DNA of 64,000 bases from Candidatus Jettenia sp. (GTDB taxonomy: Bacteria; Planctomycetota; Brocadiia; Brocadiales; Brocadiaceae). Positions within the stretch are counted from its first letter, which is position 1, and the number at the start of each line of letters is the position of its first letter. The stretch is taken from assembly GCA_021650895.1 (NCBI GenBank), contig CP091278.1:3625659-3689658 (forward strand). The letters run 5' to 3'. Shown here in pieces: positions 8,897-55,014 of this stretch. The notes under the pieces were generated by a model. It worked only from the letters and a program-made list of their open reading frames with translations, did not search any database and was not told the origin of the DNA. The translations under genes were made by a program, and so were the position numbers.

Positions 8897-8961
8897 GACG
8901 CAGAACTGATGATGGAGAAGACGTATCATAAGTCTTTCTGTGTAGGGCGAGGCTTTGGCCT

Positions 8962-9485
8962 CATATGCATCAAGCTAACATGTGGAAACGGTGAAGAACA
9001 TAATCCCCCTTAGTCCCCCTTTAGAAAACTTATCCTTACCCACAAGTTAGGTAGGGAGCGAAGGTAGAAGCAAGGTAAACCACGAAGTACACGAAGAAAG
9101 AAGAACGTAGAGAAGCAAGATTTTGCGCCTTTACAATTGAGGTAGGGGTGTGTTGCTTCGCCTCAAGAAGGGATCGATCATAAAAAGAATTTATTGAGAT
9201 TTGGAACTCTCTTATTCTTCGTGTACTTCGTGTTCTTTGTGGTATTTAAAGATGTGGGTAAGGACAAGTTTAGAAAAGGGAGAAAAGTTTGATATTGTTG
9301 ATCAGGCAAACTTTTCTCAAGAGAAAATCCTTCCTTCTTTCTCCCCTTTTCTAAACTTATCCTTCTTTCCCCCTTTTTTAAAGGGGGGTTAGGGGGGATT
9401 AGAGGGGAATATGGGCACACATTGTTCTCTTTCCAAGGAGATACCTCCTTTTTTATGGAACACTATTCTTAGCTTGATGCGTATG
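8962..9485 (-). mobile_element. M2 non-autonomous mobile element, copy A (524 bp)
   Basis: The left end CATATGCATCAAGCTAA (8962-8978) and right end TTAGCTTGATGCGTATG (9469-9485) are inverted repeats with one mismatch. The 11 bases outside are duplicated: GGCTTTGGCCT (8951-8961) and GGCTTTAGCCT (9486-9496), one mismatch. Inside are C-rich/G-rich stretches (CCCCCTTTTCTAAAGGGGG type) and an M3 module. No coding frame resembles a transposase. Orientation is opposite to copies B and C. It separates atpA from atpG. Confidence 0.82.
9026..9271 (+). repeat. M3 inner module nested in M2 copy A
   Basis: 246 bp bounded by AAACTTATCCTTACCCACA and its near-complement TGTGGGTAAGGACAAGTTT. It contains inverted CACGAAGTACACGAAG motifs. 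A second copy in opposite internal orientation is at 54658-54904, and a relic lies near 24405-24450. Confidence 0.7.
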
Positions 9486-9582
9486 GGCTTTAGCCTTGCC
9501 AGGCAATCCTAAAGGGTTGCCCTACGGAATTGAAATTTCTCAACATTAAACTTCAGGTCTGAAAAAGGGAAAGAGATCGGGA

Positions 9583-17276: not shown

Positions 17277-17287
17277 GGGTAGATTCA

Positions 17288-17790
17288 TATATGCATCAAG
17301 CTAAGAATGGTGTTCCATAAAAAAGGAGGTATCTCCCTGGAAAGAGAACAACGTATGTCCATGTTCCCCTCTAATCCCCCCTAACCCCCTTTAGAAAAGG
17401 GGGAGAAAGAAGGATAAGTTTAGAAAAGCAGGGTGGCACGGACAAACCATGTCCCCGTACGCTTTGAACGGGGACATGGTTTGTCTGTGGTGTTCGAATA
17501 CACCCGTGGATAGGGAATATACCACACTGACAAACAGAGTTTGTCAGTGCCACCCAGGAAGAGGCTTACAGAGCATAACAATTTCTCGAGAGACGCCCCC
17601 GGCGAGATGTCTCTATATTCTAAAGATGTGGGTAAGGATAAGTTTAGAAAAGGGGGAAAAGAAGGAAGGATTTTCTCCTGAGAAAAGTTTGCCTGATCAA
17701 AAATATCAAACTTTTCCCCCTTTTCTAAAGGGGGATTAAGGGGGATTATGTTATTCTCCACCATTTCCATATTTTAGCTTGATGCATATG
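17288..17790 (+). mobile_element. M2 non-autonomous mobile element, copy B (503 bp)
   Basis: The left end is TATATGCATCAAGCTAA and the right end TTAGCTTGATGCATATG. The 11-bp duplications outside are GGGTAGATTCA (17277-17287) and GGGTGGATTCA (17791-17801), one mismatch, so the element landed in an R7-type repeat. It carries G-rich stretches and an inner insert (about 17430-17625) containing R3 sequence (GGCACGGACAAACCATG) and ending GTGGGTAAGGATAAGTTT. No transposase frame was seen. Confidence 0.82.
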
Positions 17791-17864
17791 GGGTGGATTC
17801 AGCGGAGCGAATCCACCATAGCATCTTTTCAAACAATCTCAAGATCTAAAAAGGAGGAATACAG

Positions 17865-24352: not shown

Positions 24353-24463
24353 CACCTTATCTTGATGTAGAGGAAATGCAAAGTTTTTCATGATGTCGTT
24401 AACACACCCCTAACCTCAATTGTTGAGGCGTAAGATTCTGCATCTCTACAGGGGAATGAACCC

Positions 24464-24723
24464 CATATGCATCAAGCTAAGAGTAGTGTTTCATAAAAAA
24501 GAAGGTATTCCCCTGGAAAAAGAGCACTGTATGTTCATATTTCCTTCTAATCCCCCCTAACCCCCCTTTAAAAAAGGGGGGAAAGAGGGATAAGTTTAGA
24601 AAAGGGGGAACGAAGGATTTCCCCCTTTTCTAAAACACCCATATATTTCCCCCTTTTCTAAAGGGGGATTAAGGGGGATTATGTCATTCTTCACCGTTTC
24701 CACATGTTAGCTTGATGCATATG
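24464..24723 (+). mobile_element. M2 non-autonomous mobile element, copy C (260 bp, cleanest)
   Basis: The ends CATATGCATCAAGCTAA (24464-24480) and TTAGCTTGATGCATATG (24707-24723) are perfect 17-bp inverted repeats. The flanks GGAATGAACCC (24453-24463) and GGAATGAACCC (24724-24734) are a perfect 11-bp target duplication. The interior is only G/C-run hairpins (AAAAGGGGG, CCCCCTTTT). It lacks the inner inserts of copies A and B, so it may be near the minimal unit. The sequence just left (24405-24460) is a relic of the M3 module. Confidence 0.88.
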
Positions 24724-24731
24724 GGAATGAA

Positions 24732-24977
24732 CCCACCCCTAACCCCTCCCAAGAGGGGAATAAAAACTAGTCCTCGACCCGATCGGGGAAAGTCCCCTCT
24801 CGGGAGGGGATTGAGGGGTGGGTAAAAAAGAACAGCCGTTGAGTTTTGCCTTTTAAAACCCAACCTAATTTAATGTTTAGGACTTTCAAAGTATTTTGTT
24901 TTTCCATGTCATTCCCACGAAAGTGGGAATCCAGGCACTGTTTGAGGAATCTGGATTCCCGTTTACACGGGAATGAC
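24732..24977. repeat. Two further hairpin repeats between DUF2267 and the kinase gene
   Basis: The first (24732-24822) has CCCACCCCT and CCCCTCCC arms matching GGGAGGGG and AGGGGTGGG. The second (24908-24977) pairs GTCATTCCCACG and CGGGAATGAC around TGGGAATCCAG and CTGGATTCCC; relatives lie at 33296-33370 and 54556-54586. No gene is seen between 24163 and 25039. Confidence 0.7.
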
Positions 24978-30577: not shown

Positions 30578-31645
30578 ATGGAGAAGATGCTTGCAACTGA
30601 AGAAGAAATCGCTTTGCGGGCATACAACAGACAGTACCTATGCGCAGAAATGGGAGGCGGAAGAGAATTAGTAGCCAACAGAAATGAAGCTCATGAATGG
30701 GAGACTTTTCAACTGATTGGATTGGGTAATGGAAGTGTAGCGCTTAAAGCCCATAACGGACAGTATGTATGTGCGGAAATGGGAGGAGGAAGAGAGCTAG
30801 TTGCTAACAGAAATGAAATTCACGAGTGGGAGACTTTTGAATTAATAGGATTAGGAAATGGAAAAGTAGCGTTTAAAGCCCATAATGGACAGTATGTATG
30901 TGCAGAAATGGGAGGCGGCAGAGAAGTAGTTGCCAACAGAAATGAAATTCATGAATGGGAGACTTTTGAATTGATTGAATTAGAGGAGGTTAAAACACCT
31001 GATCAACCTGGTCTACCTAAGAAAGGCAAACTTCTTGATATAGGAACAAGAATTTGCGTAGACCAAAAAGAGAAAAAGGCAAATATCCGGATAACTGCCC
31101 ATATTTTCACTAATAATTATAAAGTTTATGATGACATAGGAGCAAGTACCAGGTTAGAATTGGAGAAAAAGCGACCTATTTCGCAAAAAGCATGGTGGTG
31201 GAATATTGATGGCCATAATAGTGTGAGAGCTTTCTTCACTATAAATGATGATTTGGGCCAAAGTATAGTATGTCATGAAGCCCACAATTATCAATTTGAT
31301 AATTATGTTTCTGCAAGAGCTATACGTTTTGGAATCCAGATTGGCGGAGAGGTAGGAAAGATACTTGATCCTACGCAATATAATTTTAAAATGGATGGTT
31401 TTAATTTAGATCTTAGATTCTGGGAAAAAGATTGGAAAGGCATTCTAGCTGATAATAAGTTTAAATTTCCGATAAAAATAAATTTCCCTAAAGATAAGGC
31501 CAGACAATTTAATGGAGTTATTGCCTTTCATGCGGCTTCCAGCAAGGGACAGGAATTCCGTATAGTAACCAGTTGGAATGTGACTAATAAAATAGTAGTT
31601 CCTGAGCAATTTAGAAATGTATTTGATTATTATATTAAGTGGTAA
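30578..31645 (+). CDS. Fascin-like beta-trefoil protein with unknown C-terminal domain
   Basis: 355 residues, start supported by AAAGGAGAAGG. Residues 11-131 hold three nearly identical lobes of about 42 residues, each with A.NGQYVCAEMGGGRE and ANRNEIHEWETFELI; three such lobes make one beta-trefoil of the fascin/ricin-like kind. A Pro-rich linker follows (about 136-146), then about 210 residues I do not recognise. No signal peptide is seen. The lobes are also very alike in DNA, pointing to recent internal duplication. Binding of sugar or protein is a guess from fold. A broken relative is at 36925-37441. Confidence 0.75.
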   Translation: MEKMLATEEEIALRAYNRQYLCAEMGGGRELVANRNEAHEWETFQLIGLGNGSVALKAHNGQYVCAEMGGGRELVANRNEIHEWETFELIGLGNGKVAFKAHNGQYVCAEMGGGREVVANRNEIHEWETFELIELEEVKTPDQPGLPKKGKLLDIGTRICVDQKEKKANIRITAHIFTNNYKVYDDIGASTRLELEKKRPISQKAWWWNIDGHNSVRAFFTINDDLGQSIVCHEAHNYQFDNYVSARAIRFGIQIGGEVGKILDPTQYNFKMDGFNLDLRFWEKDWKGILADNKFKFPIKINFPKDKARQFNGVIAFHAASSKGQEFRIVTSWNVTNKIVVPEQFRNVFDYYIKW

Positions 31646-54639: not shown

Positions 54640-55014
54640 TTCTTTCCCCCCTTTTTTAAAGCTTGTCCTTACCCACATCTTTAAATACCACAAAGAACAC
54701 GAAGTACACGAAGAATAAGAGAGTTCCAAATCTCAATAAATTCTTTTTATGATCGATCCCTTCTTGAGGCGAAGCAATGCACCCCTACCTCAATTGTAAA
54801 AGCGCAAAATCTTGCTTCTCTACGCCCTTCTTTCTTCGTGTACTTCGTGGTTTACCTTGCTTCTACCTTCACTCTCTACCTAACTTGTGGGTAAGGATAA
54901 GTTTTTAAAGGGGGGTTAGGGGGAATTAGAGGGGAAGCATAGACACACATTGTTCTTTCTCCAGGGGGATAACCTCTTTTTTCATGGAACACTATTCTTA
55001 GCTTGAGGCATATG
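54640..55014 (-). mobile_element. M2 element, copy D (partial; left end missing)
   Basis: The right arm is very close to copy A (CATGGAACACTATTCTTAGC, ending TTGAGGCATATG at 55014). The inner M3 module occupies 54658-54904, inverted relative to copy A. No left terminal repeat or target duplication is found, so it is truncated or rearranged. Confidence 0.7.

What the first reader, a model, noticed from the sequence alone, without database searches (positions are those of the whole stretch)
17277..17801. M2 copies seem to prefer other palindromic repeats as targets
Copy A sits in an R1 palindrome, copy B in an R7-type GGGTGGATTCA repeat, and copy C beside a CCCACCCC hairpin repeat and an M3 relic. 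Three of three clear insertions lie in repeats, which suggests target choice by hairpin structure, as known for some IS that insert in REP sequences.
Basis: partly seen in the sequence, partly recalled or inferred. Interest (0 to 1): 0.55.

Follow-up and report, generated by a model that had tools for sequence, protein, structure and literature searches.

The report
Small transposon that jumps into repeats
A short non-coding transposon in an anammox bacterium lands about half the time inside other repeated sequences, mostly because those repeats carry the ten- or eleven-letter target it recognises and not because they fold into hairpins.

Summary
The interval is a 503-bp element with 17-bp inverted ends and an 11-bp target duplication, 17277-17801. 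The genome is near Candidatus Jettenia and has 214 such ends. Of 67 two-ended elements examined, 49 keep a 10-12 bp duplication. Of these 49, 25 lie in repeats of at least 3 copies, against 130 of 1500 random non-coding positions (odds ratio 11). Twelve of 49 sit in the GTAG-tagged palindrome R1. However, 24 of 49 lie outside such repeats.

A motif learned only from 16 unique-sequence targets (GGG/N5/CCC-like) places all 20 held-out 11-bp repeat-family targets above the 95th percentile of non-coding 11-mers. With that motif accounted for, hairpin strength adds nothing detectable. Membership in a repeat still adds about threefold (p = 0.0007), which I cannot explain.

The ends match the published IS231-subgroup (IS4 family) signature at all eight conserved positions and the duplication lengths fit. 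M2 is best read as a MITE mobilised by an IS4/IS231-type transposase. No matching transposase was found in this genome; relatives carry IS4 transposases with such ends, two of them also in palindromes. The hairpin interpretation is not supported; the repeat preference is real and ordinary in kind.

The parts
17277..17287 (.). left target duplication of copy B, GGGTAGATTCA
17288..17790 (+). M2 copy B (503 bp): MITE with 17-bp TIRs TATATGCATCAAGCTAA / TTAGCTTGATGCATATG
   Evidence: empty site in Ca. Jettenia ecosi L117
17791..17801 (.). right target duplication of copy B, GGGTGGATTCA
17791..17817 (+). rest of the R7-type palindromic repeat hit by copy B (GGGTGGATTCAGCGGAGCGAATCCACC)
   Evidence: target centre about 8.5 nt off the stem axis
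8942..8961 (+). left half of the R1 (GTAG-tagged) palindrome interrupted by copy A; TSD 8951-8961 GGCTTTGGCCT
8962..9485 (-). M2 copy A (524 bp), inverted relative to copy B by its internal sequence
9486..9500 (+). right half of R1; TSD 9486-9496 GGCTTTAGCCT
24453..24463 (.). left TSD of copy C, GGAATGAACCC
24464..24723 (+). M2 copy C (260 bp, short form)
24724..24734 (.). right TSD of copy C, GGAATGAACCC, first bases of the CCCACCCC-type long repeat
54650..55014 (-). M2 copy D, one end only (TIR 54998-55014), other end not found; flank without repeat hits

Best explanation
M2 is a non-autonomous element (MITE) that an IS4-family transposase of the IS231 type moves, or once moved, by cut and paste. 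The transposase picks 10-11 bp of duplex DNA with G/C runs at both ends and an A/T-rich centre (about GGG-N5-CCC) and duplicates it. Several intergenic repeats of this genome (R1, the CCCACCCC long repeat, GGGGCGAACCT and R7 palindromes, M3, M2 itself) happen to carry high-scoring copies of that target in many places, so M2 is found in them often. Hairpin folding is not needed. Shown: ends, duplications, one empty site, motif, repeat excess, no hairpin effect. Inferred: the transposase and its mode of target reading. A further, roughly threefold pull towards repeats is unexplained; tolerance of insertions in repeats is my first guess.
For: TIR found 214 times, reversed-pattern control 5. Of 67 two-ended elements 49 have TSDs of 10-12 bp with <=2 mismatches; mispaired flanks give 217 of 4422. 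Motif from 16 unique sites only: G+C 0.85, 0.81, 0.73 at positions 1-3 and 0.24-0.32 at 4-8; held-out repeat-family sites 20 of 20 above the 95th and 17 of 20 above the 99th percentile of 40045 non-coding 11-mers. Score-weighted motif alone predicts 30% in repeats (bootstrap 21-40%) against 8.7% for random positions; observed 51%. Logistic model: motif p 7e-10, stem p 0.16, energy p 0.97. Twelve R1 insertions carry no two like elements (0 of 66 pairs with >80% mutual coverage), so they are separate events. Ends equal the IS231 signature CAT-------AA--TAA and DR 10-12 bp (Table 1 of PMC2266710, passage). IS4 transposases with such ends occur in relatives.
Against: The motif does not account for everything: membership in a repeat keeps an odds ratio of about 3.2 (p 0.0007), and R1 takes 12 of 49 where the motif predicts 6% (bootstrap 0.5-17%). 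No transposase with these ends was found in the own genome among 9 DDE_Tnp_1 hits. The motif rests on 16 sites, and 2 of the 16 score below the 95th percentile when left out. 18 of 67 two-ended elements lack a clear duplication. Unique sites had somewhat more negative folding energy than motif-matched unique ones (p 0.026); over all sites the energy effect vanished with G+C in the model.
Confidence: 0.75

Rival explanations
1. The transposase (or a host factor) recognises the hairpin or cruciform of palindromic repeats.
For: 25 of 49 sites in repeats; R1 is hit at its symmetry axis; ISRm22 and ISPsy8 are reported to insert at the symmetry axis of REPs (PMC1525189, passages); residual repeat effect.
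Against: No effect of stem or energy beside the motif; off-axis targets in the other repeat families; half of the sites outside repeats; targets not more self-complementary than half-swapped ones. My stem measure looks at 71 bp and loops up to 12 or 20 nt only.
Confidence: 0.1
2. Survival bias: M2 lands wherever the motif is, but insertions in spacer repeats are harmless and persist, while those near genes or promoters are lost. (An addition to the best explanation, offered for the residual excess.)
For: Would explain the residual odds ratio of about 3 after motif matching without any recognition of repeats; repeats lie in intergenic DNA.
Against: Cannot by itself produce the motif. Not tested directly here: promoter distance and gene orientation were not compared.
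Confidence: 0.5
3. Repeats and M2 spread together: one M2-bearing repeat was copied many times, so the sites are not independent.
For: Three sites (737384, 1093027, 1593446) share the same two flanks without a duplication.
Against: 0 of 66 R1 pairs and 0 of 28 long-repeat pairs of elements cover each other by >80%; the three odd sites hold elements in different orientation and sequence.
Confidence: 0.05

Closest known systems
IS231 subgroup of the IS4 family and its MITE-like derivatives (MIC231, recalled)
   Same: Ends fit CAT-------AA--TAA at all 8 conserved positions; duplications 10-12 bp (PMC2266710 Table 1); target like GGG(N)5CCC, which I recall for IS231A (Hallet 1991, 1994: only titles seen, in the reference list).
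   Different: M2 has no transposase; host is an anammox planctomycete; no intact driver found in the same genome.
ISRm22 (IS4 family) in Sinorhizobium meliloti REPs
   Same: IS4-family element whose copies sit in REP palindromes, insertion at the axis (PMC1525189, passages).
   Different: ISRm22: nine of nine copies in REPs of S. meliloti, with 6-bp repeats, as read there; M2: 25 of 49 in several unrelated repeats with 10-12 bp duplications, the rest outside.
GTAG-tagged REP elements (the target R1)
   Same: R1 = GTAGGGCAAGGCTTTAGCCTTGC, tag GTAGGG beside 58 of 68 sampled cores; GTAG repeats are reported in the Planctomycetes group (PMC3733652, passages).
   Different: This anammox family was not named in the passages seen ('Kuenenia' 0 hits there; Jettenia was not searched in that paper).

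Membership tests
IS4 family, IS231 subgroup (as its MITE) | terminal signature CAT-------AA--TAA | tested here: met
   CATATGCATCAAGCTAA matches 8 of 8 conserved positions (signature from PMC2266710)
IS4 family, IS231 subgroup (as its MITE) | target duplication of 10-12 bp | tested here: met
   36 of 11 bp, 11 of 10 bp, 2 of 12 bp among 49; mispaired control 217 of 4422
IS4 family, IS231 subgroup (as its MITE) | transposase with DDE and Y-2-R-3-E-6-K motif moving these ends | tested here: inconclusive
   None with this TIR among 9 DDE_Tnp_1 hits of the own genome. Relatives: IS4 transposase, NF033592 232.7 bits, cut-off 115, beside ends with the same signature; YREK readable by eye in the proteins. 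That it moves M2 is untested.
IS4 family, IS231 subgroup (as its MITE) | target GGG(N)5CCC (recalled for IS231A) | tested here: met
   motif from 16 unique sites
MITE | short, no transposase gene, TIRs, TSDs, many copies, empty sites | tested here: met
   lengths mostly 181-720 bp, 214 TIRs; no long transposase-like ORF in the window copies (longest within copy B 116 aa; not searched against families); empty site for copy B in Ca. Jettenia ecosi
hairpin-targeting element | insertion follows secondary structure independently of sequence | tested here: not met
   stem p 0.16, energy p 0.97 beside the motif; off-axis targets

The most novel reading that the evidence does not exclude
Beyond the 11-bp motif, something about repeat DNA itself (a bound host protein, supercoiling, or breaks made by the REP transposase) draws M2 in about threefold. 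The same has arisen in a second anammox genus on an unrelated palindromic repeat, making repeats a shared safe landing ground for IS231-type MITEs.
Probability: 0.15. Interest if true: 0.55.

Novelty: new member of a known kind. Interest (0 to 1): 0.33.

Why it matters
It separates two ideas that are often merged: that transposons sit in REP palindromes, and that they recognise the hairpin. Here a motif learned from unique sites places repeat targets that were held out of its training, so hairpin reading is not needed. It also gives anammox genomes an IS231-type MITE family with about a hundred copies (estimated from 214 ends), usable as insertion markers between closely related species, and names a clean experiment for the part that the motif leaves open.

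Tried and rejected
Considered the idea that the repeat association is a coincidence of the window: rejected by the genome-wide count. Considered R1-M2 units spreading as a block: rejected for R1. Considered a 2067-bp element in sister genome G016 (L120) as the autonomous parent of M2, since it has M2 ends and an IS4-type transposase (one in-frame stop): rejected, because the transposase lies on a separate 1802-bp IS with its own ends (CTTATCCTTACCCACA type), found also outside M2 in L213; Pfam names it Tn5-type (Dimer_Tnp_Tn5). L146 in G021 has one matching end and an IS4 transposase, but no second end within 4 mismatches. L128 (G009) was dropped as a second-genus example because its flanks equal those of own site 3709492, probably a contaminant contig. 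A solved-structure search for the relative's transposase gave nothing. Literature on IS231 targets: the primary paper asked for is not held; one search gave nothing useful. Rows dropped before counts: 18 of 67 two-ended elements without a clear duplication and the single ends were left out of the main test; counted apart, 13 of 36 and 13 of 36 flanks are in repeats against 53 of 1000 random 60-mers (1 of 37 single ends had no full flank). In the logistic model 5 of 49 sites scoring below 3.5 were left out. About 44 of the 214 ends lie outside the stretches fetched (170 found at <=3 mismatches).

Full report
What is there. The interval 17277-17801 is a target duplication, an element and a second target duplication: GGGTAGATTCA, 503 bp with 17-bp inverted ends, GGGTGGATTCA. 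In the relative Ca. Jettenia ecosi (SULG01000074, L117; the query protein next door is 87% identical) the flanks meet without the element. Copies A and C in the window have the same build, with TSDs GGCTTTGGCCT/GGCTTTAGCCT and GGAATGAACCC twice. A fourth copy has one recognisable end.

Genome-wide sample. The window lies at 3625659-3689658 of a 3.82-Mb one-contig genome. The 17-base end occurs 214 times at <=3 mismatches, the reversed control 5 times. From the 100 places listed, plus matches, I fetched 80 stretches and 20 background samples. They hold 67 two-ended elements and 37 single ends. Of the 67, 49 have a 10-12 bp duplication with at most 2 mismatches (36 of 11 bp, 11 of 10 bp, 2 of 12 bp); mispaired flanks pass in 217 of 4422 cases.

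Are repeats preferred? Empty sites were rebuilt in a script and compared with a background of 264 kb with M2 masked. 25 of 49 overlap a repeat with >=3 other copies; 130 of 1500 random non-coding positions do (odds ratio 11, p 1.3e-13). Non-coding was defined by a simple open-reading-frame mask, not by gene calls. R1 takes 12 of 49; its 11-base core occurs 273 times in the genome, control 1. So the association is real. But 24 of 49 sites are not in such repeats, so it is not exclusive.

Motif or hairpin? A weight matrix from 16 unique 11-bp sites reads GGG-like, A/T-rich centre, CCC-like. All 20 held-out 11-bp sites (repeat-family and R1 sites) exceed the 95th percentile of 40045 non-coding 11-mers, 17 exceed the 99th; 14 of the 16 training sites exceed the 95th when left out. 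Motif-matched non-coding positions lie in repeats in 108 of 501 cases, and the score-weighted expectation is 30% (bootstrap 21-40%), against 51% observed (p 0.002 against the point value, 0.07 against the upper bound). In a logistic model on 44 sites and 501 controls the motif is strong (p 7e-10), repeat membership keeps an odds ratio near 3.2 (p 0.0007), stem length (p 0.16) and folding energy (p 0.97, with G+C) have no effect, and with repeat membership included they stay at p 0.91 and 0.19. The duplicated bases sit at the axis of R1 but off the axis of other repeats. Targets are not more self-complementary than half-swapped targets (1.81 against 2.25 of 5 pairs in the 16 unique sites): some are GGG-N5-GGG in one strand. 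Hairpin reading is thus not supported; reading of a duplex with G/C-rich edges is.

Flanks left out of the main test agree: 13 of 36 flanks of the pairs without duplication and 13 of 36 single-end flanks are in repeats, against 53 of 1000; 29 and 28 of 36 have an adjacent 11-mer above the 95th percentile.

Relatives. The end is common in all three genomes of the genus and in one genome of another genus (G021), rare or absent in the other 29 of 33 genomes of the family. In G016, 26 of 26 element pairs have a flanking 11-mer above the 95th percentile of the own genome's non-coding 11-mers, 20 above the 99th; several sites are shared with the own genome, so they are not all independent. In G021, 10 of 13 pairs have 10-bp duplications with at most 2 mismatches and by eye 8 of 13 lie in another repeat, around CCCTTCATCCCCCTCCGGAGGG. 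An apparently intact IS4-type element there, L140 (1592 bp, 440-aa protein), sits in that same palindrome with duplication GGATGAAGGG; another, L132 in G020, sits in GCAAGGCGTACCTTGC with duplication AGGCGTACCT. Their ends keep CAT-------AA--TAA. The related protein L126 is an IS4 family transposase (NF033592, 232.7 bits; DDE_Tnp_1); L132 is 78% and L140 about 33% identical to the L133 copy of it.

Classification. Table 1 of PMC2266710 (passage) gives CAT-------AA--TAA--- and 10-12 bp for subgroup IS231. M2 meets both. The GGG(N)5CCC target of IS231A is recalled; only titles of those papers were seen. Insertion of an IS4-family member into REPs is in print for ISRm22 (PMC1525189, passages). 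I saw no report of M2 or of REP-targeting MITEs in anammox bacteria in the listings of searches, which cover open-licence papers only. So this is a new member of a known kind.

What stays open. The residual threefold pull to repeats could be survival of harmless insertions, shortcomings of a matrix built on 16 sites, or a property of repeat DNA. The transposase that moved M2 is not identified.

Noticed in passing
window 9029-9268: Inside M2 copy A a second MITE is nested: ends CTTATCCTTACCCACA/TGTGGGTAAGGACAAG and a 9-bp duplication TTTAGAAAA. Its ends match those of a 1802-bp Tn5-type IS in sister genome G016 (L120, L213). Copy D carries a like stretch.
   Followed up: partly
own genome 737384, 1093027, 1593446 (L039, L045, L056): Three M2 elements share the same two flanks (GGGGTTAGGGG / GGGTTCATTCC) of the long repeat without duplication and with one T missing between them, yet differ in orientation and sequence; perhaps two adjacent insertions followed by deletion.
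   Followed up: partly
own genome 3396837-3397188 (L187, L190): A broken Y1-type (REP-associated type) transposase gene has R1 cores on both sides, a possible former driver of R1.
   Followed up: no
G009:C16 (L128): A 7.5-kb contig of a genome of another genus has an M2 with flanks identical to own site 3709492; probably a contaminant contig.
   Followed up: partly
window 30626-31012: Three tandem 129-nt copies (82% and 74% identity to the first) inside the ORF 30578-31645.
   Followed up: no
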